DNA of 40,992 bases from Candidatus Hydrogenedentes bacterium ADurb.Bin170. Its GTDB lineage: Bacteria > Hydrogenedentota > Hydrogenedentia > Hydrogenedentales > CAITNO01. The stretch spans positions 1 to 40,992 of the forward strand of contig MWCY01000027.1 in the NCBI GenBank assembly GCA_002070275.1, given 5' to 3'. This document shows positions 10,835-36,141 of the stretch, piece by piece. Made by a program: the position numbers and the translations under genes. The notes under the pieces were generated by a model. That model had not been told where the DNA came from and made no database searches. It worked only from the letters and a program-made list of their open reading frames with translations. Position 1 is the first letter of the stretch, and each line of letters begins with the position of its first letter.

Positions 10835-13378
10835 TCACGGCAGAGAGACAGGGCGTATTTCCCAATCCACGGTAAAAGAATGGGACTCACCCGGCTGAAG
10901 AAGAACTGCTTTAGCCCAGAGCTCGCATTCTAGATCATTGATGTACTCCGGATAAGCATAAAGCCAGGCATGATCCAGTTGTTCAGAATCAAAACGCTGG
11001 ATCACTTCCAGAGGAATATCACCTCTGAGGCACCATTCATTCAACGGAATCTCCTTTTTGCGAAACTTGATACCTTCTCGCAGTCCCGGAATTACCTCGT
11101 CTGCCTGGTGCGTATGCGGATTGTTTTCCAGATCAGTGAAATGGACATTGAATTGCTGAAGGGCTCCCAGGTGGAAATTGGTGTGAGACCGCATCATTGC
11201 CTCCCGGGGTGAAGCAAGGAGATTTTTAACCGTAGCCTTGATGGTTAAAACAGGATTGTCCGGATGAAGTGTAAACTCCCGTGTGATAAGCCAGCCGTCT
11301 GCTTCAGCCTGCAAGGTCAGCGCATTATCCTTTCTCGAGACAATTTCGAACTGATAAAACATTCCTGCAGGATCAAACTCCCCTCCCAATCGGAGCTCTT
11401 CTCCGCCACAGAAAGGAAAAAATAAATTCCGGGTAATGTTATACCCGGTCACACACAGGCCTGTATTTTTGTCTGTTACCCTAAGCGCTCTGCCGCCCAG
11501 AAAGGGAGCAAAGTCTGCTTCCAGATACTTGCTCGAGATTTTAGGGGCATGAAGGGGCGAAGAAAAAGCAAGTCCCAAAAGAAAAAGCTGCTGCGGATCC
11601 CCTTGGATTTCTCTGATTGTTTTGAACCCATGTTTTTCGAGCCTGGAGACGAAACTGGATATTGTGTCAAAGTCGGCAAGGGGTTCATTAAAGATTAATT
11701 GTTCTTCTTCTATCCTGTATCCATTGCGCGGGAAAAAACAGGCGTATTGAAGCGGCATGCGTGCTACTCGGATTTTTTCCAGAAGATTATCATCGCTCAT
11801 AGCCAGCGACTCTGCTTCGTCAAAAAGCCGATTTCCCGCATCAATGATTTCATTGGGCAGATAGCCCTGCGCCGGGTTGGTATAAAGATGCATATGGATG
11901 TTGTTTTTGTCCACTTCATCCTGAAGCATGTTTATATACCGGTACACAGGATTCCATGCTTTTCCGTAATAACCCTGAAGGAAATCCTGAAGGAGCTCCT
12001 GCGCATCATAATCCGGGTTCCAAAGGAGTTTCATCCCGTACCAGGGACGCAGCAGGCTGAATTCGCCTCCCCCGCCGCTGTGTCCCATACCTTGCAGATA
12101 AATGCCTTCAACGCCAATATTTTTATAAAAGCGCATGTCTTCAGCCAGGGCGCCAAAATTGGGAAAGGGGCTGTAATAATGCACAAAATTAACAACATAG
12201 TGCCAGATATAGAGATGCTTTGTAAGTTCCGCCCACCTCTTTGCACGTTCCCGATACTGCCGGTTATGAGGGCATGTGGCTATGCTGTGACTGTCACAGG
12301 AAGGAAACATATGGCACAGCCATATAGCGATATTGGGATGTAGTGCCAGCCCTTCCGGAGGCTCCTCCGTGTACATGTATGCAAGCGTCCCGATGGTCTT
12401 TTCGGGAAAAAAGACGCTGGTACGTTCAGCCAGTTGATTCAAAAACCAATACTGGGTTCCTCCGGAAGTGCCATAGCGCTCGTTGATGGCTGTACATTGC
12501 GGGCACTCGCAGTAATTATAGTAATCCATCTGGGAAAAATTGTGTTGCGTGATTTCCGGTTGAGCTCTCATTCGCTCCAGCATTTTTTCAGTCACTATTT
12601 CAAGTACTTCCGGATTTGACAGGCAGAGTTGTGTTTCGTGTTTTCTTCGTATTCCTCCAATTTCAGAAAAATATTCCGGATGGCTGTCAAAGTATTCTGA
12701 AGGGGAAATAAAGCGGAAATAAGTATGACAACGACCATCCTGCGTATACTGAATTCCTTGCTCCCGCTCACCTGTGCCCATCCCGTCGTTATCGCAAAGG
12801 CGTGCAAGAAAGAGATCATCTTTTCCGGGCCAGGCATAGGACGTATGTCGCCACTTAAAGGCAGGCTTTTGAATTTTATCCATTTCCGGAAGAGAAAGAG
12901 TACTGATTTCGGGAATTGTTTCTTCACCGGGAGCGTACCAGCGGACACTTAAAAATTCTTCAAGAAAAGCGTTAACCCCGTAAAGAGTGCCTGCCTCACG
13001 ACTCCCGCCTATAAAAAAATGGGGAGGCACTGAACGAAAAAGAAAACCCTGATCTCCGACATCCTCAAGGCTTTCTGAAATTCCCAAACGGGTGGCTGTT
13101 TCACTGAAACCGACAAGGAGTAACGGCATGTTCTCTTTTGCCAGATCGCTTTGAATTAAAGGCAGCAGAACACCGGCAGAAGCCCTGATGCACCGCTGCA
13201 ATTCCCGGGCGGCAAATTTTTCGGACGGACTCGCTTCGGAGGAGACAGCGATTGAATAGTCGCTTTGACCGTCATGGATCAGACTCAGGGCCTCCGCAGA
13301 AAGGGACAGGGGGAAAAGTGAAACAACGCAAAAAACAATGATGCTGCAGGCAACAAGGACTGATTTTATGGTCTCCAT
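10835..13378 (-). CDS. Secreted DUF4838 protein, glycoside-hydrolase-like
   Basis: 847 residues. A signal peptide is clear: a short charged start, VLVACSIIVFCVVSLFPLSL, cleavage near SLSA/EAL (residue about 28). Residues 40-160 resemble the alpha-glucuronidase (GH67) N-terminal fold (FAARELQRCIRASAGVLLPL). The central DUF4838 domain shows WYAPGEE, SQMDYYNYCECPQCTAINER with the family's Cys-x-Cys-x2-Cys, LAYMYTEEPP and WHYVVNFVHYYSPFPNF. The last ~250 residues look like a beta-sandwich. DUF4838 proteins are common in polysaccharide-degrading Bacteroidota, Planctomycetes and Verrucomicrobia and are assumed to act on carbohydrate; catalytic residues are not defined. ATG at 13378 has CAGGAG nine bases before it. 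It starts 27 bases after the PHP gene stop, so the two are probably one transcript. Confidence 0.85.
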   Translation of the reverse strand: METIKSVLVACSIIVFCVVSLFPLSLSAEALSLIHDGQSDYSIAVSSEASPSEKFAARELQRCIRASAGVLLPLIQSDLAKENMPLLLVGFSETATRLGISESLEDVGDQGFLFRSVPPHFFIGGSREAGTLYGVNAFLEEFLSVRWYAPGEETIPEISTLSLPEMDKIQKPAFKWRHTSYAWPGKDDLFLARLCDNDGMGTGEREQGIQYTQDGRCHTYFRFISPSEYFDSHPEYFSEIGGIRRKHETQLCLSNPEVLEIVTEKMLERMRAQPEITQHNFSQMDYYNYCECPQCTAINERYGTSGGTQYWFLNQLAERTSVFFPEKTIGTLAYMYTEEPPEGLALHPNIAIWLCHMFPSCDSHSIATCPHNRQYRERAKRWAELTKHLYIWHYVVNFVHYYSPFPNFGALAEDMRFYKNIGVEGIYLQGMGHSGGGGEFSLLRPWYGMKLLWNPDYDAQELLQDFLQGYYGKAWNPVYRYINMLQDEVDKNNIHMHLYTNPAQGYLPNEIIDAGNRLFDEAESLAMSDDNLLEKIRVARMPLQYACFFPRNGYRIEEEQLIFNEPLADFDTISSFVSRLEKHGFKTIREIQGDPQQLFLLGLAFSSPLHAPKISSKYLEADFAPFLGGRALRVTDKNTGLCVTGYNITRNLFFPFCGGEELRLGGEFDPAGMFYQFEIVSRKDNALTLQAEADGWLITREFTLHPDNPVLTIKATVKNLLASPREAMMRSHTNFHLGALQQFNVHFTDLENNPHTHQADEVIPGLREGIKFRKKEIPLNEWCLRGDIPLEVIQRFDSEQLDHAWLYAYPEYINDLECELWAKAVLLQPGESHSFTVDWEIRPVSLP

Positions 13379-15771: not shown

Positions 15772-16704
15772 ATGCATAAAAGGGATCAGGTTTTGCAGCA
15801 AGAAAAGATAGAGGCTTTATTAGGTCCGATAGACGGACACTATTTTAAAGGCCAGTATTCTGATCCCGAAATTTCTATTCGCTTACTGAGTGATCTCGGG
15901 AAAAAGCGGCAGAATAATGAAGATTCCTGTATGCTTTATGTGCCCGGTTCCGAGGCACTTACTGATTCCCGCGGAATCCTCGTCGCTGTTGCCGATGGAA
16001 TGGGCGGAGCGAAAGCCGGAGAATATGCGAGCCATAATGCCTTGCGTTGTATTTGCCCCGTTTATTATGAAAGAAATCCGCATGCTCTGGTACCTGCGGC
16101 GCTGAGGCAGGCGGTGGAGGCAGCCAACGCCTTTGTCTTTCGGGAGTCCGAGCATAATATTGATTTTTCCGGCATGGGCACTACAGTGAGTGCTCTGGCT
16201 ATTGTGGGCAACTGGGCTTACATAGCGCAAGTGGGAGACAGTCGTATTTACCTGCTGCGGTCCGGCATGCCTCTCAAGCAGCTTACATATGACCACACGC
16301 TCGTGGCAGAGCAAATTAAAAACGGCTTGATTAACGAAGAAGAAGCTCGAAACCATTCGTTAAAAAATTTGATTACCCGCGCCGTAGGTATTCGCGACAC
16401 CGTTGATGTGGATCTCTTTGCATTGGAATTGCAGCCCCACGATACACTTCTTCTTTGTTCAGACGGTCTGACCAATATGGTGAACGACGAAAATCTTGAA
16501 AAAGAGCTTGCACAAGAAGACCTGACGGCAATGTCAGAAAGCCTGCTCGAAAAAGCCTTAGAAGCTGGCGGTACGGACAATATAACCATGATCCTTGTTC
16601 GTATCGGTGAAGTTTTAAAAGAATCCAATTATCAGCAAGGCGGCCACATTATTTCCTTTCATAAAAAAAGTGCTCTGCGTAGGCTTTTCTCCTTCTTTTC
16701 TTAA
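15772..16704 (+). CDS. PP2C-family Ser/Thr protein phosphatase (cytoplasmic)
   Basis: Metal-dependent phosphatase of the bacterial Stp/PrpC type, 310 residues. Motifs in order: SDLGKKRQNNEDSC (Asn-Glu-Asp metal site), VADGMGGAKAGEYAS, FSGMGTTVSALAI, AQVGDSRIYLLR, NLITRAVG, LLLCSDGLTNMVND and GGTDNITMILV. All metal-binding aspartates are present, so it should be active. There is no signal peptide or membrane helix; an N-terminal extension of about 35 residues precedes the catalytic core. ATG at 15772 has no strong SD; TTG at 15793 (after AAAAGGGATCAGG) is an alternative. Its usual partner, a Hanks-type kinase, is not encoded here. A second PP2C at 23194 has the same core but a membrane anchor. 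Confidence 0.92.
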   Translation: MHKRDQVLQQEKIEALLGPIDGHYFKGQYSDPEISIRLLSDLGKKRQNNEDSCMLYVPGSEALTDSRGILVAVADGMGGAKAGEYASHNALRCICPVYYERNPHALVPAALRQAVEAANAFVFRESEHNIDFSGMGTTVSALAIVGNWAYIAQVGDSRIYLLRSGMPLKQLTYDHTLVAEQIKNGLINEEEARNHSLKNLITRAVGIRDTVDVDLFALELQPHDTLLLCSDGLTNMVNDENLEKELAQEDLTAMSESLLEKALEAGGTDNITMILVRIGEVLKESNYQQGGHIISFHKKSALRRLFSFFS

Positions 16705-17411: not shown

Positions 17412-18806
17412 ATGTCACAAAAAAATAAAAACAGAGACATTTCTGCCGATGAGCAGATTTCCCCTCTGATCCCTGCCTATGCAGCCTATATTGCCGCTTT
17501 TTTGTTTGTGGCGGGCATAGTGTCCATGTATTTTCTCGGACGCAACGGACAGGACTCTTTTACCTGGAAAAACTATCTGGCCATCGCCCTTACCGTCTGC
17601 AGTGCTGTGCTGTGGTTTATAAGCGGTATGGATCGGACACAGGTTCTTGACTGGTTTCGCAGCGGGTTCATTGCCTTGTTCCTCGCTTTAACTATCCGCT
17701 GGGCAATAGCAGAACCGTACAGAATTCCTTCGGGCTCCATGGAAACAACACTGCATGGCGATCCTCGCTTCGGTCGTGGTGACCGCGTCTTTGTGAATAA
17801 ATGGATTTATGGACTGCGGTATCCCTTTTTAAACAAGCGAATCTGGCAGGGTAAAATGCCGGAGCGCTGGGACATTGTGGTTTTTAAGGCAGTCGAGCCT
17901 GATGCTGTGCATAAAACGCTGGTCAAACGTATTGTCGGGATGCCCGGCGAAGAAGTGCAAATTCGCAGTGGGCGTGTATACATCAACGGGACGCCTTTGA
18001 CCCTTCCTGAAAGTATCGGGCAGGAGATTTATTATACATCGCCTCTGGACGGTCCCTATGGCGTTCAGTCCTTACCACAATACTCACAAATTCCTGACGG
18101 GCACTATCTTCTTCTTGGGGACAACAGCGCACACAGCCGTGACGGTCGTTATTTCGGATGGGTACCCAATGAAAATATGGTGGGGCGCGTATCGTCTATC
18201 TGGTGGCCACCGCCCCGTTGGCGTGATTTTACGGGCTTTTCTCAGCAGCTTTGGTGGCGTGGCGGCATTACTGTGTTTTTGTTACTGGCTGTCTTGCGCC
18301 TTCTTGCCGGGCGAGTTTGTTCTGCAAAAAACGCCAATGGCCCCCGGGGACAGCGCTGTGTTATTTCTTTTTTGAGTTACGGGCTGCTTGTTCCGTTTTT
18401 ACTCAAAAGGATTATTACGTGGCGCCGCCCTGCTTCCGGAGAACTTGTACTGTTTAAAGTAAAAGATCCTCTTACAAAAAGTGATTTCTTGTTTCTAGGA
18501 CGTATTGCCGCTGTTGCGGGCGAGCGTGTTACTTTTGACAATGGGCGTTTGTGTATAAATGGTTCTTTGCCAGAATCAGGATATTTTGTAAACAAATCTT
18601 TCGAAACGGAAACAGGAAACATAAAATACGGCAGAATTAAATCCAAAGAGTTTTCCACTGTCCCGGAACATGCGTATTTTCTGCTTAGCGATGACAGTGC
18701 GCCGGGTGCCTGCGAGCATGACAGCCGGACACTGGGTTGGATTTCCGAAGATGCGATTGTTGGTAAAGCAGTCTTCTGCTGCTGCGGCGTTAAGCAGGCG
18801 GATTAA
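17412..18806 (+). CDS. lepB: Signal peptidase I with a second, degenerate S26 domain
   Basis: Leader peptidase that cleaves signal peptides at the outer face of the inner membrane. 464 residues from the ATG at 17412 (an in-frame TTG at 17388 is less likely). Two or three N-terminal helices (residues about 22-100) precede the active domain: YRIPSGSMETTL with nucleophile Ser109, RGDRVFVNKWIYGLRYP, LVKRIVGMPGEEV with general base Lys172, and LLLGDNSAHSRDGRYFGWV. After WWPPPRW come two more helices (about 283-301 and 317-333). Then a second copy follows: SGELVLFKVKD, LFLGRIAAVAGERVTF, YFLLSDDSAPGACEHDSRTLGWI. In this copy the Lys position is Gly363 and there is no SGSM box, so it should be inactive. 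First of the tight group lepB-hemW-aat-dtd (gaps 20, 17, 21 bases). Confidence 0.93.
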   Translation: MSQKNKNRDISADEQISPLIPAYAAYIAAFLFVAGIVSMYFLGRNGQDSFTWKNYLAIALTVCSAVLWFISGMDRTQVLDWFRSGFIALFLALTIRWAIAEPYRIPSGSMETTLHGDPRFGRGDRVFVNKWIYGLRYPFLNKRIWQGKMPERWDIVVFKAVEPDAVHKTLVKRIVGMPGEEVQIRSGRVYINGTPLTLPESIGQEIYYTSPLDGPYGVQSLPQYSQIPDGHYLLLGDNSAHSRDGRYFGWVPNENMVGRVSSIWWPPPRWRDFTGFSQQLWWRGGITVFLLLAVLRLLAGRVCSAKNANGPRGQRCVISFLSYGLLVPFLLKRIITWRRPASGELVLFKVKDPLTKSDFLFLGRIAAVAGERVTFDNGRLCINGSLPESGYFVNKSFETETGNIKYGRIKSKEFSTVPEHAYFLLSDDSAPGACEHDSRTLGWISEDAIVGKAVFCCCGVKQAD

Positions 18807-23193: not shown

Positions 23194-24135
23194 ATGCTGT
23201 TAGATATCGGTTGCGCTACGCATATAGGTTTGAAGAAAACCAAAAATGAAGACAGCTTCGGGATCTTTGACCCGAAAACTGCTGAAGTAAGCCTTTTTGG
23301 TGAAGGAACCCTTGCAGCTGTTGCCGATGGGTTGGGTGGGCATATTGGCGGCGATATCGCATCGAAACTTGCTGTGTCTATGTTGAAAGATGCATTGAAA
23401 AAGGAGGCGCCCCGGGACGAAGATCGCGGGTCGGAGCGTGAAGATGCACACTTTCTGGATGCCATCAAAGATGCCATTAAGCGCGCAAATGAAAGCATTC
23501 ACCAGACCAATAAAGATGTTATTCAGGGAAAGCGCCCCATGGGCACGACCTTATGTGCTGCCCTGCTCCGGCCCCATACTGCTTATGTTGCCAATGTGGG
23601 CGACTCAAGAGCAGAACTTTTCAGAGACGGTATTTTTGTGCGGCACACCGTGGATCACAGTTGGATTGATGAGCAGGTGCAGCAGGGCCGGATGACCCAA
23701 GAGGAAGCAGAAAAAGACAAAAGAAAAAATCTGCTTACCCGAAGCATCGGCACCCAGCCGTCCGTTGAAGTGGATACTTACCAATGGCCGATCAGAAATG
23801 GCGATCAGCTTCTTATCTCTACCGACGGTCTGCTGAATATGGTAAACGATGAGACACGCCAGCAGATACTTACTCTTGATCGTACGGCTCAAGAAAAAGT
23901 GGATATCCTCATCGAAAAAGCACTTGAAAACGGCGGGAAAGATAATGTGACGATTATTCTCGCTGTTGTCAATCCGCCAAAATCCAAACTTAGAAAGCAG
24001 CGGCGTAACGCATGGTTCAGAAAACATTCGGCTAACATTCGGCGAAAGATTGTCCTCTTTTTTTACAGTCTCCTTCTTATAACGTTGGGATATATAGCGG
24101 GCTATGTGCATGCCCGCTTCCTTTCCCTCTTTTGA
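23194..24135 (+). CDS. PP2C-family Ser/Thr protein phosphatase with C-terminal membrane anchor
   Basis: 313 residues. Catalytic core 1-270 with all PP2C motifs: LKKTKNEDSFG, VADGLGGHIGGDIAS, GKRPMGTTLCAALL, ANVGDSRAELFRDG, NLLTRSIG, LLISTDGLLNMVND and GGKDNVTIILA. A basic linker (SKLRKQRRNAWFRKHSANIRRK) leads to a membrane helix at about 285-308 (IVLFFYSLLLITLGYIAGYV), so the phosphatase should be tethered with its core in the cytoplasm. The ATG at 23194 has only a distant GAAGAG. It resembles the cytoplasmic PP2C at 15772, including the 'GLxNMVND' box, and may be a paralogue. No kinase gene is adjacent. Confidence 0.92.
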   Translation: MLLDIGCATHIGLKKTKNEDSFGIFDPKTAEVSLFGEGTLAAVADGLGGHIGGDIASKLAVSMLKDALKKEAPRDEDRGSEREDAHFLDAIKDAIKRANESIHQTNKDVIQGKRPMGTTLCAALLRPHTAYVANVGDSRAELFRDGIFVRHTVDHSWIDEQVQQGRMTQEEAEKDKRKNLLTRSIGTQPSVEVDTYQWPIRNGDQLLISTDGLLNMVNDETRQQILTLDRTAQEKVDILIEKALENGGKDNVTIILAVVNPPKSKLRKQRRNAWFRKHSANIRRKIVLFFYSLLLITLGYIAGYVHARFLSLF

Positions 24136-27633: not shown

Positions 27634-29694
27634 ATGGCCATAGACATAATGAAAAAAGCCACAGTGCTTTGTCCGCTTACGTCGACCAAGCAGTTGCTCA
27701 AATCCCTTCACGCCGAGGGTATTATCGAATTGGTCGATGTGATGGAGCGCTACGAAGAAGCGCGGGATGCATTATCACGCCCTTCTGTTTCCACGGCAGA
27801 CTGTGATGATGAACTGCAAAAATTATCCCTCATTATAGGGCTTTTAAATACATTTGCGCCCGAGGAAAAGAGTTTTATTCAAGGGCTTGCGCCGGTACCC
27901 CTTCTTGTGGATCCCGATGAATTAAATCAGTTATACCAGCAATTTCCTCTGCAGAAGCATTACGAACATGCGCTCGATCTGGACGGAGAGTACCGCAAAA
28001 TAGAGCGTGCTCACGGCGCGACCGAAAACCGGCTGGCAGAGTTGGCCCCTCTTGCTCATTTTCCATACGCCCTGGAACAGTTGACACGCCTTCAGGAAGT
28101 CCGTCTTATACTCGGCTCAATTTCCCTGAAAAATTTAAATACTTTAAAGCAGACTCCTGAGAAACCGGCGGGAATGCACTGGGAAGAAATTGATCCGCAA
28201 GGCGCGGTTCATGATAACTCGGACCCGAAAAACAAGGCAGGAAAAGCGCCGGAAGTTGTCTGGCTTCTTGTTGCTGTCTTGCCGGACGCTGAAACGGACG
28301 CACGACAAGTACTGAATGCACATGGCTTCCTGGAGATTGCATTGCCGCAAATTTCCGGTACTGTCGCCGAGCAGATCCGCTCACTGGAAGAAGACCTGGT
28401 TGTACAGAAACAGAAGTTGGAAAATGTTGCAGGTCAAGTCCGGGAGATGGCGCAATACCGCCATGAATTTTTGGTGCTTCGGGCCGGCTGGGAAGACCGT
28501 AAGAAACTCAAATTAAGTCGTCTCCAAAGCGCACATGGAGAGTATGTGCAGGTGCTCACAGGCTTCATCCGTGCAACGGACAGCCCCCGACTGGAAGAAA
28601 TGCTGCGCCATGACTTTTCCGAAGCCAGCCTTCTGCTGGAAGATGTGACAGATGAGGACGCAGTGCCCGTCAGTATCACCCTGCCGAAACTGGTTCGCCC
28701 GGTACAGCTTCTGGTTGATCTTTTCGGCAGACCTACCTACGAGACCTTTGACCCGTCTCCGTTCATCATGCCTACCTTTCTTCTTTTCTTCGGTATTTGT
28801 TTTAGTGATGTTGCTTATGGTGCCATGCTTTCACTGCTAAGCCTCTATATCATGAAAAAAACAAAGCCTTATGTCGGCATATACAATTTTGCGAAGCTCC
28901 TTCTTTACGGGGGCTTGTCAACGATGTTTTTCGGTTTTGTGCTGGGCGGTTTTTTTGGCGATTTATACATGCCCCAGTATATGGGTGAAAACAATCTTCT
29001 TTATCGCTTTATGAGCAGTGTACAGATAATAAGTCCCTTGGATAAACCCATTGCAGTGCTGTTAATTTCTCTTGCGATAGGGATGGCAAACCAGTTTTAC
29101 GGTATCGGTCTGCAGATGTATTCTTCCATGTTGCGAGGAGATAAGAAAGCCGTTTTATACGATGGACTTCTATGGCTTGTTGCGCTGCCGGGTTTTGTTC
29201 TTATTATAGGGAAAATGTTTGCACCTGTGCCTGCTCCCCTCTTTTATCTGGGTATGCTCCTCTTTTTTGGAGGTGCCATTGGTCTGGTTCTTACACAGGG
29301 CAGAGAGAACGAAGGGCTTGTTCAACGATTTTTAACAGGGCTGGTGAGTCTTTATGGCATTGTCGGCTCCTACGGAATTACTGCCTTTATCGGTGACACC
29401 ATGTCCTACTGCCGTCTCCTTGCCCTTGCACTGACGACCGGCATTGTTGCGCTTTCATTTAATATGATGGCAGGGCTTTTACGTCCCATACCTTATGTCG
29501 GCTTTATATTATTTATAGTTGTGCTTATTGCTGCTCACGTATTTAATTTCTTTATTAATGTACTGGGCGCTTTTGTGCATTCGATGCGTCTTATTTTTGT
29601 GGAGTTTTTCGGTCGGTTTTACGCTTCCGGATCAAAAACCTTTACGCCTCTGGGATTTAATTCCAAAACGGCAGTGCTTTATAAAAAGCAGTAA
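27634..29694 (+). CDS. ntpI: V-type ATPase subunit I (membrane stator, a-like)
   Basis: 686 residues. The N-terminal half (about 1-365) is cytoplasmic, with a coiled coil around 255-285 (AEQIRSLEEDLVVQKQKLEN). The second half holds seven or eight membrane helices, starting at FIMPTFLLFFGICFSDVAYG. The helix GDTMSYCRLLALALTTGIVA carries the Arg that lies against the rotor ring and is needed for ion passage, and HSMRLIFVEFFGRFYASG is the well conserved C-terminal signature. It forms the ion half-channels with the K ring. It begins three bases after the coiled-coil gene and is followed after 79 bases by subunit K. A GAGAT sequence eight bases upstream is a weak SD. Confidence 0.94.
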   Translation: MAIDIMKKATVLCPLTSTKQLLKSLHAEGIIELVDVMERYEEARDALSRPSVSTADCDDELQKLSLIIGLLNTFAPEEKSFIQGLAPVPLLVDPDELNQLYQQFPLQKHYEHALDLDGEYRKIERAHGATENRLAELAPLAHFPYALEQLTRLQEVRLILGSISLKNLNTLKQTPEKPAGMHWEEIDPQGAVHDNSDPKNKAGKAPEVVWLLVAVLPDAETDARQVLNAHGFLEIALPQISGTVAEQIRSLEEDLVVQKQKLENVAGQVREMAQYRHEFLVLRAGWEDRKKLKLSRLQSAHGEYVQVLTGFIRATDSPRLEEMLRHDFSEASLLLEDVTDEDAVPVSITLPKLVRPVQLLVDLFGRPTYETFDPSPFIMPTFLLFFGICFSDVAYGAMLSLLSLYIMKKTKPYVGIYNFAKLLLYGGLSTMFFGFVLGGFFGDLYMPQYMGENNLLYRFMSSVQIISPLDKPIAVLLISLAIGMANQFYGIGLQMYSSMLRGDKKAVLYDGLLWLVALPGFVLIIGKMFAPVPAPLFYLGMLLFFGGAIGLVLTQGRENEGLVQRFLTGLVSLYGIVGSYGITAFIGDTMSYCRLLALALTTGIVALSFNMMAGLLRPIPYVGFILFIVVLIAAHVFNFFINVLGAFVHSMRLIFVEFFGRFYASGSKTFTPLGFNSKTAVLYKKQ

Positions 29695-29773
29695 AGGGCT
29701 TAAATGTTCTGGATCGTTTGATCATTTTGTAAAGTATTCGGTGTAAAAACAACAGTAGTATTGGAGAGTAACC

Positions 29774-30283
29774 ATGGATCATGCACTAGCAGTTGAAATT
29801 GGACGCGGGTTAGCCATCGCAGGTGCGGGTATTGCCGTTGGACTGGGTTGCTGCGGCTCCGGAAAAGGCATTGGCATTGCATCCCAGGCCGCAGCCGGAG
29901 TTATCAGTGAAAAGCCTGATTTGTTCGGGCAGCTTCTTGTGATGCTTGCACTTCCCGGCACTCAGGGCTTTTATGCCTTCATTACCGGCATCATGATTTT
30001 CATGCGCACAGGTTTGATCGCCGGCGAGTGGACCGCTTCTGTCAGCACCGGTGTTGCCCTGTTCTTTGTCGGCCTCGGTGTCGGGTTTGCACAGTATGTG
30101 ACAGCTATCTGGCAGGGAGAAGCTTCTGCTGCCGGTATTGCACTCGTTGCCCGTCGTCAGGAAGAGTCCGGGCGTGCGCTTCTTTTCCCCGCCATGGTGG
30201 AAACCTATGCTGTGGTTGCTCTTCTTGCCGGTATTCTTTCCATTATTTGGCTGACCAATCCCAATTTTGTTGCTTTCAATTGA
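29774..30283 (+). CDS. ntpK: V-type ATPase subunit K (rotor-ring proteolipid), Na+-type ligands
   Basis: 169 residues, four membrane helices from a duplicated hairpin, as in E. hirae NtpK (156 residues). The second helix carries LALPGTQGFYAF (Leu60, Thr63, Gln64, Tyr67) and the last hairpin has IWQGEASAAG (Gln114) and PAMVETYAVVALL (Glu143). These correspond to Leu61, Thr64, Gln65, Tyr68, Gln110 and Glu139 of NtpK, where they form the Na+ site. A proton-only ring is not expected to keep all of them, so I infer Na+ translocation. Only one carboxylate per four helices is present, as in eukaryotic and enterococcal V-ATPases. The ATG follows TTGGAGAG by six or seven bases; 39 bases separate it from subunit E. 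Confidence 0.95.
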   Translation: MDHALAVEIGRGLAIAGAGIAVGLGCCGSGKGIGIASQAAAGVISEKPDLFGQLLVMLALPGTQGFYAFITGIMIFMRTGLIAGEWTASVSTGVALFFVGLGVGFAQYVTAIWQGEASAAGIALVARRQEESGRALLFPAMVETYAVVALLAGILSIIWLTNPNFVAFN

Positions 30284-30322
30284 CCCGTTATGTTTTTAAG
30301 TAAATTACAGGGATGACAGACC

Positions 30323-30925
30323 ATGGCACTCAATGAAATTACGCAGGCCGTCCTTGATCGGGCACGCAAAAACGCCGAGCTGATTGTTAAATCGGCGCAA
30401 GTTGCGTCGGAAGAAAAAGTAGAAGCCTGGCGTAAAAACGCTGAAACAGAGATGGACAAGAAATTTCAGAGCATAAAACTTGGCATCGAAGAAGAGTTTT
30501 CCCGCAAACTCATACAGATGCAGGGAATTTCAAATAAAGCAGTTCTAACAAAGAAAAATGAGTTGCTGCAGCAGGTTTTTGCCCTGGCAAAAGCGAAAAT
30601 TCTGTCCATGCCCCGGGAAGAATACAGGAAGGTATTTAAAAGACTTCTTGAAAAATCTGTCGGCCAATCAAGCGGTGCATTAAAAATTCATCCTGAGGAC
30701 AAAGCTGTTTTTGAAGAAATGCTGGCCGAGTTCAATGAGAACCGCGACGAAAAGGATCATGTTCGGCTTCTTGATGAAGAGTCCCTTCCTGAGCGTGGCG
30801 GTTTCATTTTTGTAACTGACCGTTTTCAAGTGGATCAAAGCCTGAGCACGCTTTTAAGCGATGTTCAGTATGAGTCTGCGCCAGAAATTTCAGCCGCACT
30901 CTTTTCGGATGATTCCGGGAAATAG
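30323..30925 (+). CDS. ntpE: V-type ATPase subunit E (peripheral stalk)
   Basis: 200 residues. A long N-terminal helix (residues 1-80, for example NEITQAVLDRARKNAELIVK and KKFQSIKLGIEEEFSRKL) is followed by a compact C-terminal domain with LPERGGFIFVTDRFQVDQSL, which matches the end domain of archaeal and bacterial E subunits that binds the A3B3 head. It lies between K and C, as expected for the operon. The SD for the ATG at 30323 is not strong (AGGGATGACAGACC). It stops 15 bases before subunit C. Confidence 0.93.
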   Translation: MALNEITQAVLDRARKNAELIVKSAQVASEEKVEAWRKNAETEMDKKFQSIKLGIEEEFSRKLIQMQGISNKAVLTKKNELLQQVFALAKAKILSMPREEYRKVFKRLLEKSVGQSSGALKIHPEDKAVFEEMLAEFNENRDEKDHVRLLDEESLPERGGFIFVTDRFQVDQSLSTLLSDVQYESAPEISAALFSDDSGK

Positions 30926-30940
30926 TGAGAGGAACCCAAT

Positions 30941-31936
30941 TTGGCAGCCTTGACTAAAAACCAGAATAAATGGGGATTTGCCTGCGGGCGTGTCAGTGCT
31001 TTAGAAGGGCAGCTGATTCCTCAGGAAACCTTCTATCTCCTGGCAGGTTTAGACCGTGTCCAGGATGTTTTTAACCGACTGCAGGAAACATCACTGCGTG
31101 AGCATATGACCCACGGAGCGCTGACCTGGGAAGATTGGAGCACAGTAATCGATAATTATGTGCACTCCCAGATTCTTTCACTCAGGCAGTGCACCCCCAA
31201 TCCGGCAATCTGCGATCTCTACAGCCTGTCCGAAGATTATCTGAACTTGAAAAGGGCTGTTCAGAATCGCGGTTCCTTTCCATTTGGAAAAAGCCAGTTT
31301 TCCGAGTCCAGACTGCTGGAAGTCGCGTCCGGCAATGGAAGCCTCCTCCCTGAAATTATCCGGCCTGCGCTCTCCCCTGTCCTGGGAGGCGGCAGCCAGG
31401 AAGAAAACAGTCAATTTGTGCTGGATGTTACTTTGGATGGTGCTTTTTTGCGTCATTATCTTTTTCTTGCGCACCAGTCCGAAGCCCCTTTTATTGAAGA
31501 GTGGGCAACGTTAAGGGTTCTCGGCAGGGCTCTGGTCGCCATGTGGCGCGCTTTCAGAGCGGGACAGCAGTTGAAAGTCTTTCCCGCACATTTCCTGCCT
31601 TTAAACAGTCTCGACGGGCTTATCACTGAAATCAGTACCATTCCCGATCCGAAAGCCTGGGGGGCATCCATTCCCGGCCGGCCCGGTGATTTGTGGCAGG
31701 CGGCTTTTGAGGCAGAAGAAGACGAACAAGTGTCCACATTCGAGACCCTTCTTGCGAATCATCTGACGGAGCTGGCGCAGCGGGTAAAACTTCAGACTGC
31801 CGGCCCTGAACGGGTCGCGGGTTATCTTTGGGGACTCTGGATTGCCGCTTACAATCTGAAGCTTGTTATAAGCGGAAAACTGAACAACCTTGATGAAAAT
31901 CTTCTGAAAAAGCGAATACGGAATACTTATGTCTAA
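30941..31936 (+). CDS. ntpC: V-type ATPase subunit C (d-like, rotor cap)
   Basis: 331 residues. The fold is the AC39/subunit d family: it sits on top of the K ring and connects it to the central stalk. The N-terminus has the family's WGFACGRVSALEGQLIP, and the C-terminus ends in AYNLKLVISGKLNNLDENLL and KKRIRNTYV, the usual closing motif. The middle is poorly conserved across the family, so position helps the call. The start is TTG at 30941, with GAGAGG eight bases upstream, one of the few TTG starts in the operon. The end overlaps subunit F by eight bases. Confidence 0.9.
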   Translation: MAALTKNQNKWGFACGRVSALEGQLIPQETFYLLAGLDRVQDVFNRLQETSLREHMTHGALTWEDWSTVIDNYVHSQILSLRQCTPNPAICDLYSLSEDYLNLKRAVQNRGSFPFGKSQFSESRLLEVASGNGSLLPEIIRPALSPVLGGGSQEENSQFVLDVTLDGAFLRHYLFLAHQSEAPFIEEWATLRVLGRALVAMWRAFRAGQQLKVFPAHFLPLNSLDGLITEISTIPDPKAWGASIPGRPGDLWQAAFEAEEDEQVSTFETLLANHLTELAQRVKLQTAGPERVAGYLWGLWIAAYNLKLVISGKLNNLDENLLKKRIRNTYV

Positions 31937-32249
31937 AGCATACATTTTAGGTGATAAAGCGGCAGTGCTCGGTTTCAAAGGCGTAGGCTTTGAGATTGTG
32001 CATGCCTATGACTCCGAGACTTTAATACAGGCTCTTGGGCAAGTGATCCGTGCGAATGATGCTGCTGTTGTTCTGGTGAGTGAAGATCTTGCGGAGAAAA
32101 ATCCGGAAGCACTCGCTAATTTCCGAGAAAACTGTAATGCCATTATGACCACCATACCCACCCACCACGGCAGCAATCACTCCGGATTCAAAGAGATTCG
32201 CCGTCTTGTTGAGCATTCTATCGGTGTGGATATGCTTGGTAAAGAATAG
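31929..32249 (+). CDS. ntpG: V-type ATPase subunit F (central stalk; NtpG in E. hirae)
   Basis: 106 residues, a small alpha/beta domain on the central shaft with subunit D. It starts MSKAYILGDKAAVLGFKGVG, the typical first strand and turn, continues with NDAAVVLVSEDLAEKN, and ends GVDMLGKE. Members of the family conserve IGD-x5-GFxLAG at the N-terminus, here ILGDKAAVLGFKGVG. The ATG overlaps the last codons of subunit C, so translation is probably coupled. Confidence 0.92.
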   Translation: MSKAYILGDKAAVLGFKGVGFEIVHAYDSETLIQALGQVIRANDAAVVLVSEDLAEKNPEALANFRENCNAIMTTIPTHHGSNHSGFKEIRRLVEHSIGVDMLGKE

Positions 32250-32294
32250 TCAGTATAAAGAAAGATACAAGCAGATAGTACAAGGGTATCAAGT

Positions 32295-34052
32295 ATGAGC
32301 AATGTACAGGGTGTAGTCGTCAAAGTGTCCGGTCCGCTTGTGGTTGCAAGAGGTCTGGAAAATGCCCGCATGTATGAGATGGTGCGTGTGGGCGAAGGTC
32401 GTCTGTTCGGTGAAATCATCGAAATCCGCAGCGGAGACTGCTCCATCCAAGTCTACGAAGAGACGGAAGGGATCGGCCCCGGGCAGCCTGTTTTCCGTAC
32501 GGAAGAGGCTTTGAGTGTCGAATTGGGTCCCGGCCTTATCCGTTCAATTTACGACGGTGTGCAGCGTCCTCTTGACAAACTGCATGCTTCCTTCGGCGAG
32601 TATATTGTTCGTGGAGCCGAAAGCCCTGCTTTGGATCGGTCTGTTCAGTGGGACTTTGTGCCTGTTGCCAAAGTGGGTGATACAGTGTCTCATGGCGACA
32701 TTCTCGGTGAAGTTGACGAGAGCAAGCTTGTCAGTCACAAAATTATGGTTCCTTATGGTGTGGAAGGCAAAGTAAGCAGAATTGCCCCGGTAACGGGCAA
32801 TGTCGACACCGTGGTCGCCGTTATCGACACCTCTAAAGGACCCGTTGATATCAGCATGGTTCAACGCTGGCCTGTGCGTAAGCCCCGGCCTGTCGCCAAG
32901 AAAATGCCGCCTGTCCAGCCGATGACCACCGGGCAGCGTGTTCTGGATATGTTTTTCCCGCTGACTCAGGGCGGCACAGCCTGTGTTCCCGGACCGTTTG
33001 GCAGCGGCAAAACTGTTGTGCAGCATCAGTTGGCTAAATGGGCGAATGCCCAGATCGTTGTCTATGTCGGCTGCGGTGAGCGCGGCAATGAAATGACAGA
33101 CGTTCTTCAGGAGTTCCCTGCCTTGATCGACCCCAAAACGGGCGAACCGCTGATGGAACGGACTGTGCTCATCGCCAACACATCCAATATGCCTGTTGCT
33201 GCCCGTGAAGCCTCCGTGTTTACCGGGATCACCATTGCCGAGTATTTCCGTGATATGGGCTACTCGGTTGCGCTTATGGCGGACTCGACAAGCCGCTGGG
33301 CGGAAGCGATGCGTGAAATGTCCGGTCGTCTGGAAGAGATGCCCGGAGAAGAGGGGTATCCTGCTTATCTCAGTTCACGCATTGCCAGTTTTTACGAACG
33401 CGCGGGCAACGTAATTTGTAAAGGATCCGATGAAAGAAACGGCACGCTCTCCATTATCGGAGCCGTTTCGCCTCCAGGCGGTGACTTCTCCGAGCCTGTT
33501 GTGCAGGCAACGCTTCGTGTTGTAAAAGTCTTCTGGGGGCTTGATGATAAACTTGCCTTTGCCCGGCACTTCCCTGCTATCAACTGGCTTACTTCCTACT
33601 CCCTTTATCAGGAAGTAGTAGATGCACTTGCCAATGAGAAGCTGCAGCAGCCCTGGAAGGAAAATCGCAGTCAGGCAATGAGTATTCTGCAGCGCGAAGC
33701 GGAATTGGACGAACTGGTGCGCCTGGTCGGTATGGATGCTCTTCCGCAGTCAGACCGGTTGCTTCTCCAGGCCGCCAAGATGATCCGTGAGGACTTTCTT
33801 CATCAGAATGCCTTCGACGATCGGGACACCTATACCTCCATGGAAAAACAGTTCAAAATGCTGGACTTGATCCTGACATATTTTAACGAAGCCAGACCGG
33901 CTCTGGAAGCCGGAGCCCTGCTGAACAGCCTTCTCAGTTTGAAGGTGCTTGAGGATATTGCGCGTGCAAAACTGATCGAGGAAAATGCTCTTCATCAGTT
34001 CGACGCGATTAAGGATAAATTAACCCGGGAAATAGCTGCCCTGCCCCGTTAA
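32295..34052 (+). CDS. ntpA: V-type ATPase catalytic subunit A
   Basis: 585 residues, full length. The N-terminal beta-barrel (1-75) starts VQGVVVKVSGPLVVARGLEN. The 'non-homologous region' that distinguishes A from F-type beta is at about 110-195. The P-loop is GPFGSGKT at 233-240, and the catalytic Glu is in GCGERGNEM (Glu262). Next come ADSTSRWAEAMREMSGRLEE and PGEEGYPAYLSSRIASFYERAG. It binds and hydrolyses (or makes) ATP at the interface with B. The ATG at 32295 lies 45 bases after subunit F, with AAGGGTATCAAGT upstream, an ordinary SD. It is followed by B after 46 bases. Confidence 0.97.
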   Translation: MSNVQGVVVKVSGPLVVARGLENARMYEMVRVGEGRLFGEIIEIRSGDCSIQVYEETEGIGPGQPVFRTEEALSVELGPGLIRSIYDGVQRPLDKLHASFGEYIVRGAESPALDRSVQWDFVPVAKVGDTVSHGDILGEVDESKLVSHKIMVPYGVEGKVSRIAPVTGNVDTVVAVIDTSKGPVDISMVQRWPVRKPRPVAKKMPPVQPMTTGQRVLDMFFPLTQGGTACVPGPFGSGKTVVQHQLAKWANAQIVVYVGCGERGNEMTDVLQEFPALIDPKTGEPLMERTVLIANTSNMPVAAREASVFTGITIAEYFRDMGYSVALMADSTSRWAEAMREMSGRLEEMPGEEGYPAYLSSRIASFYERAGNVICKGSDERNGTLSIIGAVSPPGGDFSEPVVQATLRVVKVFWGLDDKLAFARHFPAINWLTSYSLYQEVVDALANEKLQQPWKENRSQAMSILQREAELDELVRLVGMDALPQSDRLLLQAAKMIREDFLHQNAFDDRDTYTSMEKQFKMLDLILTYFNEARPALEAGALLNSLLSLKVLEDIARAKLIEENALHQFDAIKDKLTREIAALPR

Positions 34053-34098
34053 GCAGATGCGGAAGAATGATCAAAACAACAATGAATGAGGTCGTACC

Positions 34099-35478
34099 GT
34101 GGTAACTAGAGAATACCGTACAGCAAAAGAAATAGTAGGACCCCTGGTTCTTGTAGATGGGGTTGAAGGCGTTACTTTCGGCGAGCTTACCGATATTAAA
34201 ATGGATGACGGTACCCTTCGCCGCGGCCGTGTGCTGGAAGTAAATGGCGACAAAGCGGTCGTTCAGGTCTTCGAGGGTACCAGCGATCTTTCCCCAGAAA
34301 ATTTGACCATCAAATTTTTAGGAAAAGGCACAGAGCTTGGTGTTTCCGATGATATGCTTGGGCGTGTTTTTGATGGTTTCGGCCGCCCTATTGATGACGG
34401 ACCGCCCATTATTCCTGAAAAATGGCTGAACATCAACGGCAACCCGATGAATCCTTATTCCCGTGACTATCCGAATGAGTTTATTCAAACGGGTATCTCG
34501 ACCATTGATCTTTTGAATACTCTGGTTCGTGGACAGAAACTTCCATTCTTTTCAGGTTCAGGTCTTCCTCATTCCCGTATGGCGGCTCAAGTGGCGCGTC
34601 AGGCAAAAGTATTGAAAGCCGACGACAAATTTGCTGTTGTTTTCGGTGCCATGGGAATCACTTTTGAAGAATCAGAGTTCTTTGTTTCCGACTTTCGGCG
34701 TACGGGTGCACTTGAACGTGCCGTGCTGTTCATGAATCTTGCTGATGACCCCGCCATCGAACGTATCTCTGTTCCCCGAATGGCGCTTACGACCGCTGAA
34801 TTTCTTGCATTTGAAAAAGGGATGCACGTTCTTGTCATCCTTACAGACCTGACCAATTATTGCGAGGCATTGCGTGAAATTTCTGCAGCGCGTAAGGAAG
34901 TACCGGGTCGTCGCGGTTATCCCGGCTATCTTTATACGGACTTGTCCACAATTTACGAGCGCGCCGGCCGAATCAAAGGCAAAAACGGATCCATTACGCA
35001 GCTGCCCGTCCTTACCATGCCTGAAGACGATAAAACACATCCGATCCCGGATCTTACCGGATATATCACTGAAGGGCAGATAATCATGAGCAGGTCGCTC
35101 CATGCCCAAGGCATTTATCCGCCGGTAGATGTCCTGCCCTCACTCTCCCGCCTGAAAGACAAGGGTATCGGAGCAGGTAAGACGCGTGCAGATCATGCTA
35201 ACGTGATGAATCAGTTGTATTCCGCCTATGCGCGGGGCAAAAATGCTAAAGAACTTGCCGTTGTGCTTGGCGAGTCTGCTTTGAGTGAAATAGATCTTCT
35301 CTATGTGAAATTCGCTGATGCTTTTGAAAACCGTTTTATCCGCCAGGGAGAAGATGAAAACAGAAGTATAGAAGATAGTCTGGTCCTGGGTTGGGAACTT
35401 ATGGCTATCCTGCCTAAATCAGAATTAAAACGCGTTCGCGACGAGTTTATTGAAAAATATTACCCTGAAAAGGGCTGA
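34099..35478 (+). CDS. ntpB: V-type ATPase regulatory subunit B
   Basis: 459 residues. It has the subunit B pattern: no Walker A, with [18 protein letters not shown] in its place, and the arginine-finger segment [21 protein letters not shown] that completes the active site of A. Also [20 protein letters not shown] and [18 protein letters not shown]. The start is GTG at 34099, preceded by GAGG seven bases upstream; no ATG lies near. It ends 33 bases before subunit D. Confidence 0.97.
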
Positions 35479-35511
35479 AGCCTGTCGCTTAAAGAGTAAG
35501 GGAACATAGGT

Positions 35512-36141
35512 ATGCGCCTTGCAGTCAATCCGACACGCATGGAAATGCTTCGCCTGAGGAATCGCCTGAGCGTGGCACAGCGTGGGCACAAACTTTTAAA
35601 AGACAAACTCGATGGTCTGATGAAAGACTTTGGAGAATACGCTCAGAAGTATAAGGAGTGCCGTCTGGCAGTGGATGCAGAGCTGCCTGTCGTATTGAAA
35701 CTTTTTGTTTTGGCTGAGGCCACTTCTTCCCGACTGATTGTTGAAGATGCCCTTGAACTTACCCGTCAGGAACTCGATATTACTTCAATACCCACCCGTA
35801 TCATGAGTGTGGTAATCCCCCGTCTTGAATTCAGTTTTGGAAAAAGTCTGGGCGGTTATTCTCTGATTCACACTTCTGCTGAACTCGATAAAGCCATATC
35901 CGGGCTGAAGGTTTTCATGGAAAAACTACTGACTATGGCTGAACTTGAAGAGACAGTCAGACGTCTTGCCCAGGAAATTGAAAAGACACGCCGTCGTGTG
36001 AATGCTCTTGAACATACTGTTATTCCCCGTTTGCTGGAGACCATCAAGTTTATTAAAAATAAACTGGACGAAATGGAGCGTTCCACAACCAGCCGCCTGA
36101 TGAAAATAAAAGAACAGCGCCTGGCACAGGAAGGCAAATAA
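35512..36141 (+). CDS. ntpD: V-type ATPase subunit D (central shaft)
   Basis: 209 residues. Two long helices that form the rotor shaft: N-terminal NPTRMEMLRLRNRLSVAQRG with GHKLLKDKLDGLM, and C-terminal TRRRVNALEHTVIPRLLETI followed by KFIKNKLDEMERSTTSRLMK. These are the signatures of the D subunit. It stands last of the nine ATPase genes, as in E. hirae. AAGGGAACATAGGT precedes the ATG at 35512. The next gene starts 81 bases downstream with its own SD and no terminator between, so it is probably in the same transcript. Confidence 0.95.
   Translation: MRLAVNPTRMEMLRLRNRLSVAQRGHKLLKDKLDGLMKDFGEYAQKYKECRLAVDAELPVVLKLFVLAEATSSRLIVEDALELTRQELDITSIPTRIMSVVIPRLEFSFGKSLGGYSLIHTSAELDKAISGLKVFMEKLLTMAELEETVRRLAQEIEKTRRRVNALEHTVIPRLLETIKFIKNKLDEMERSTTSRLMKIKEQRLAQEGK

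What the first reader, a model, noticed from the sequence alone, without database searches (positions are those of the whole stretch)
17412..18806. Signal peptidase I carrying a second, catalytically dead S26 domain
Seen: after an ordinary LepB with Ser109 and Lys172, two extra membrane helices lead into a second segment that repeats the box pattern (FKVKD, GRIAAVAGERV, SDDSAPGACEHDSRTLGW) but has Gly363 for Lys and no SGSM box. Inference: an internal duplication whose second half may hold substrates, regulate the first, or form an intramolecular dimer.
Basis: partly seen in the sequence, partly recalled or inferred. Interest (0 to 1): 0.6.

Follow-up and report, generated by a model that had tools for sequence, protein, structure and literature searches.

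The report
Signal peptidase with fused dead twin
This bacterial enzyme, which cuts the address tag off exported proteins, carries a second copy of itself that can no longer cut; nearly every well-assembled genome of its phylum keeps the dead copy, so it probably has a binding or support job, possibly on the inner face of the membrane.

Summary
Window 17412-18806 (+) encodes a 464-aa type I signal peptidase with two S26 units in tandem. Unit 1 (75-279) has the catalytic Ser109 and Lys172. Unit 2 (280-464) passes the S26 model cut-offs of Pfam and NCBIfam by itself and folds as S26 (AlphaFold2 pLDDT 89.6). It has no SGSM loop, and the lysine position is Gly in 44 of 44 homologues. Its best structural match is SipA, a solved dead signal-peptidase homologue that also has Gly there. 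Profile alignment matches helix 3 to helix 4, so the repeated unit is membrane helix plus domain. One correction: there is one extra membrane helix, not two.
The arrangement is phylum-wide, found in 56 of 68 genomes and 37 of 38 good ones; none of 41 control-phylum genomes showed it. Unit 2 is under purifying selection (dN/dS about 0.1-0.3, against 0.02-0.08 for unit 1). A lepA-linked paralogue ends, where unit 2 would start, in a helix and a basic tail. With one helix between the units, this predicts unit 2 in the cytoplasm, which would rule out holding substrate beside the active site. Its function is inferred: a non-catalytic scaffold or regulatory module. New variant of a known kind.

The parts
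17412..18806 (+). two-unit type I signal peptidase gene, 464 aa (called copy A here)
17412..17633 (+). residues 1-74: N-terminal tail and two predicted membrane helices (24-44, 52-70)
   Evidence: AlphaFold2 model; hydropathy
17634..18248 (+). unit 1 (residues 75-279): membrane helix 3 (75-99) plus active S26 domain with Ser109, Lys172, GDN 236-238 and DGR 244-246
18249..18308 (+). membrane helix 4 (residues 280-299), homologous to helix 3; Trp282 and Arg296 conserved
   Evidence: hhalign; conservation; models
18309..18803 (+). unit 2 globular part (residues 300-464): S26 fold without SGSM loop, Lys replaced by Gly363, Asp437-Ser438-Arg439 and Gly451 kept

Best explanation
Shown by sequence: the gene encodes a type I signal peptidase in which the unit 'membrane helix plus S26 domain' was duplicated in tandem. 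The first unit keeps the Ser-Lys dyad and should be the signal peptidase. The second lost the nucleophile loop and the general-base lysine (always Gly) but keeps the fold core and is under purifying selection, so it is a retained pseudopeptidase. Inferred: helix 4 crosses from outside to inside, so the dead unit lies on the cytoplasmic face, behind the active unit. Inferred and less certain: it works by binding, not cutting. It would be a built-in accessory module that scaffolds or regulates the enzyme, for example by docking a cytoplasmic partner of the export machinery or by self-association, in the way separate dead S26 proteins such as SipA act without catalysis.
For: Unit 2 passes the S26 cut-offs alone. 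Unit 1 and unit 2 profiles align over helix and domain, 181 columns, E=7.7e-47, with the gap at the SGSM loop. Lys to Gly in 44 of 44; the Gly equivalent to E. coli G272 is lost as well, while the Asp280/Arg282 equivalents are kept in 41 of 43. Unit 2 model pLDDT 89.6; best match SipA Z 14.7, E. coli LepB Z about 12, lambda repressor and LexA 4-6. A unit 2-type match occurs in 56 of 68 genomes of the phylum and 37 of 38 good ones (my count). Unit 2 dN/dS is 0.105-0.281 in 10 pairs with finite dS. Topology: one helix between the domains; 13 of 13 paralogues without unit 2 end, after the equivalent helix, in a tail of net charge +2 to +7; unit 2 has more cysteine than unit 1 (0.94% against 0.54%, Wilcoxon p=0.002). 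SipA precedent: dyad replaced by Asp and Gly, cleft kept, needed for pilus polymerisation (PMC4049620).
Against: In the two-unit proteins the charges flanking helix 4 do not follow the positive-inside rule: N side +1.95, C side +1.05 on average. Helix 4 has Arg near both ends and is short. No partner or binding activity was tested. Unit 2 evolves several times faster than unit 1, and the window's own copy has lost the WWPP motif and conserved Arg342, which would also fit weak constraint on fold alone. Domain placement in the model could not be read (no coordinates, pTM 0.69).
Confidence: 0.55

Rival explanations
1. Unit 2 lies outside, beside unit 1, as an intramolecular pseudo-dimer or substrate holder. 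Helix 4 would then lie in the outer leaflet rather than cross the membrane.
For: Helix 4 is homologous to helix 3, whose domain is outside. The WWPP membrane-face motif is kept in most unit 2 sequences. Flanking charges do not favour a cytoplasmic C side. SipA, the closest structural match, is extracellular.
Against: Only one helix separates the domains, and it is more hydrophobic than helix 3 (mean 1.53 against 1.01). Paralogues cut off at this point have basic tails.
Confidence: 0.22
2. Unit 2 is a fold-stabilising leftover: needed for folding or stability of the chain but with no specific ligand.
For: Faster evolution than unit 1. The paralogue next to lepA lacks unit 2 in several families, including the window's own genome.
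Against: Kept in nearly all good genomes of the phylum, with dN/dS well below 1 and an invariant set of core residues.
Confidence: 0.2
3. Unit 2 is a peptidase with different catalytic residues.
For: Ser438 is conserved in 40 of 43.
Against: Ser438 is part of the DSR structural motif, which E. coli LepB also has. There is no conserved Lys or His in unit 2, and the lysine position is always Gly.
Confidence: 0.03

Closest known systems
Type I signal peptidase LepB (peptidase family S26, PF10502, TIGR02227)
   Same: Unit 1 has the fold, boxes and Ser-Lys dyad; unit 2 has the fold and structural motifs.
   Different: Two units in one chain, the second without catalytic residues. The LepB proteins met here outside the phylum have one.
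Streptococcus pyogenes SipA (PDB 4n31, 4k8w)
   Same: A dead S26 fold with Gly in place of the general-base lysine; best structural match to unit 2 (Z 14.7).
   Different: A separate extracellular protein encoded with pilus genes. Unit 2 is fused to an active peptidase, lacks the nucleophile loop altogether, and is predicted cytoplasmic.
Staphylococcus aureus SpsA next to SpsB
   Same: A dead signal peptidase encoded beside an active one; the two genes together match both halves of the query.
   Different: Two genes, not one chain. In SpsA the Ser and Lys positions read Asp and Ser.

Membership tests
S26 type I signal peptidase (unit 1) | Matches family models above cut-off | tested here: met
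   PF10502 199.1 bits (cut-off 22.9) and TIGR02227 193.7 (cut-off 47) for the whole protein, best stretch 79-265
S26 type I signal peptidase (unit 1) | Catalytic Ser in SGSM box and Lys in KR box | tested here: met
   Ser109 and Lys172 in 43 of 43 homologues
S26 type I signal peptidase (unit 1) | Cleaves signal peptides | not testable with these tools
   needs an assay
S26 fold family (unit 2) | Matches family models above cut-off on its own | tested here: met
   PF10502 59.3 bits, TIGR02227 66.6 bits
S26 fold family (unit 2) | S26 beta fold | tested here: met
   Predicted model pLDDT 89.6; SipA Z 14.7 over 135 residues, LepB Z 12.0 over 145
Active signal peptidase (unit 2) | Ser nucleophile and Lys general base | tested here: not met
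   SGSM loop absent; Gly at the lysine position in 44 of 44
SipA-type dead signal peptidases (unit 2) | S26 fold without the dyad, Lys to Gly | tested here: met
SipA-type dead signal peptidases (unit 2) | Separate protein encoded with pilus genes | tested here: not met
   fused to an active peptidase; gene neighbours are a DksA/TraR-type zinc finger protein, a HemN-like radical SAM protein and Leu/Phe-tRNA-protein transferase
SipA-type dead signal peptidases (unit 2) | Peptide-binding cleft retained | tested here: inconclusive
   fold kept, cleft geometry not examined; part of the cleft strand that carries SGSM is lost

The most novel reading that the evidence does not exclude
An inverted-topology signal peptidase: a tandem repeat of one membrane helix plus domain forces the second S26 domain to the cytoplasmic side. 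This phylum's enzyme would have an active face outside and a dead, binding S26 face inside, possibly linking cleavage to the cytoplasmic side of the export machinery.
Probability: 0.55. Interest if true: 0.62.

Novelty: new variant of a known kind. Interest (0 to 1): 0.45.

Why it matters
Dead signal peptidase homologues are known only as separate proteins in the literature found here. A fused dead copy kept across almost a whole phylum is a natural case for asking what a signal peptidase fold does without catalysis. If the dead unit is cytoplasmic, it is also an example of a duplicated domain flipped across the membrane, and a possible handle on how cleavage is coupled to export.

Tried and rejected
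Annotation or assembly artefact: rejected, because the same single open frame occurs in more than 40 genomes. Pseudogene remnant: rejected by dN/dS below 0.3. Two pieces of one domain split by a large insertion: rejected, because unit 2 matches most of the S26 profile (36-166 of 168) and unit 1 is complete. Unrelated fused domain: rejected by fold and profile. Named relatives in the genome collection: the one scan gave only bacterium GBS-1, whose signal peptidase is an ordinary 173-aa enzyme. Plasmid search: no true two-unit protein among the listed hits; the one record covering over 80% of the query is the adjacent S. aureus spsA-spsB pair. Literature search found no report of a tandem active plus dead signal peptidase; subscription journals and preprints are not covered. 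Searching the full-length model was uninformative for unit 2 because unit 1 fills the list, so unit 2 was folded and searched alone.

Full report
What is there. The ORF at 17412-18806 (+) encodes 464 aa. Pfam gives one family, Peptidase_S26, with two stretches; unit 2 submitted alone gives PF10502 at E=5.9e-16 and TIGR02227 at 66.6 bits against a cut-off of 47. The own genome has four S26 proteins. I read Ser and Lys in all three of the others, so unit 2 is the only S26 domain there without them.

Anatomy. AlphaFold2 on 45 homologues gives helices 24-44, 52-70, 75-99, the first S26 domain, one helix 280-299, then a second S26 domain (pLDDT 85.4, pTM 0.69). Unit 2 alone models at pLDDT 89.6, pTM 0.84. 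Foldseek and VIA-align put it with SipA (Z 14.7, 135 residues, 3.6 A), LepB (Z about 12) and SpsB (Z about 12 but rmsd 7.4), well above lambda repressor, LexA and Tudor domains.

Origin of the repeat. Profile-profile alignment of the two units gives 181 columns, probability 100%, E=7.7e-47. It pairs helix 3 with helix 4 (WFRSGFIALFLALTIRW with WWRGGITVFLLLAVLRL) and places the deletion at the SGSM loop. The repeated unit is therefore membrane helix plus domain.

Catalytic loss. Across 45 aligned proteins Ser109 and Lys172 are invariant. The lysine position of unit 2 is Gly in 44 of 44. The glycine that packs on the lysine in LepB (G272) is mostly Ser, Ala or Thr in unit 2, as expected once the lysine is gone; SipA shows Asn there. 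The Asp and Arg of the DSR motif, and the structural Gly and Pro residues, are kept. In SipA the dyad is Asp48 and Gly85 (PMC4049620), so the same Lys-to-Gly change occurs there; I take this to be independent, which I did not test.

Distribution. All 60 nearest genomes but one have a match, but that search also counts unit 1. From the phylum table (68 genomes, one order) I count a unit 2-type match in 56, and in 37 of the 38 genomes at least 90% complete and at most 5% contaminated. The exception, G040, has congeners with it and is in about 660 contigs, so an assembly gap is likely. In 41 genomes of the phylum of bacterium GBS-1, used as a control, no tandem match was listed; nearly all hits are single domains in frames of about 170-270 aa. 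Other phyla could not be sampled.

Two gene copies. The own genome has a second LepB (343 aa) directly downstream of lepA, the classical lepA-lepB order (L002; the LepA identity is my reading of the neighbouring protein). It has unit 1, a following helix, and a basic tail RKRKK, but no unit 2. In several relatives this copy sits directly beside the two-unit copy. In families f4 and f5 the lepA-side copy also carries a unit 2. A tree of all domains puts every unit 2 in one clade (SH-aLRT 99) on a long branch, away from all unit 1 sequences. The quick method and long branches leave open whether the lepA-side unit 2 is inherited or was acquired from the other copy.

Selection. Nei-Gojobori dN/dS on pairs with finite dS gives 0.018-0.077 for unit 1 and 0.105-0.281 for unit 2 (the first run stopped part-way on a pattern error and was repeated). 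Unit 2 is constrained, though several times less than unit 1. For the window and its congener G001 dS is saturated; amino-acid identity is 82% in unit 1 and 47% in unit 2.

Topology. Unit 1 must face outward to work. One helix separates the units, so unit 2 should be inside. Thirteen of thirteen lepA-side-type paralogues without unit 2 end, just after the equivalent helix, in a net positive tail of +2 to +7, which by the positive-inside rule is cytoplasmic. Cysteine is commoner in unit 2 (p=0.002); the window protein has 7 in unit 2 and none in unit 1. Against this, the charges flanking helix 4 in the two-unit proteins do not differ in the expected direction. I put the cytoplasmic placement at about 0.65, and the fuller reading in the section on the most novel reading, which adds a binding role, lower.

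Mechanism. Steps shown: duplication, loss of catalytic residues, retention of the fold core, phylum-wide retention under selection. Steps inferred: unit 1 is an active peptidase (from its intact motifs), unit 2 is cytoplasmic, unit 2 acts by binding. SipA shows that a dead S26 protein can be essential for a process by non-catalytic means (PMC4049620); SpsA shows that a dead copy can also be dispensable (PMC12445088). Which applies here is unknown.

Noticed in passing
window residues 455-464, about 18774-18803: The window's own unit 2 is more degraded than most: the WWPP motif kept in most relatives reads CCCG, conserved Arg342 is Ser, and it holds 7 cysteines.
   Followed up: partly
L002:1363-2394 (own genome C6): The lepA-linked LepB copy has a long insertion between the lysine box and the GDN box and a C-terminal helix with a basic tail, and no unit 2.
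   Followed up: partly
L115:1520-2860, L116:364-1671: In two genomes of family f5 the first unit of the two-unit protein lacks the HGDPxFGRG loop after SGSM and branches away from all other unit 1 sequences in the tree.
   Followed up: no
L086 (G031:C281): The two-unit gene appears as two overlapping frames of 375 and 352 aa, probably a frameshift in the assembly or a real break.
   Followed up: no
window 15772-16704 and 23194-24135: Two PP2C-type phosphatase genes in one window (the first by Pfam; the second by eye only).
   Followed up: no
window 27634-36141: A cluster that looks like a V-type ATPase operon.
   Followed up: no
window 10835-13378 (-): An 847-aa protein with DUF4838 and a GH67-like N-terminus, beside a PHP-domain protein.
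   Followed up: no
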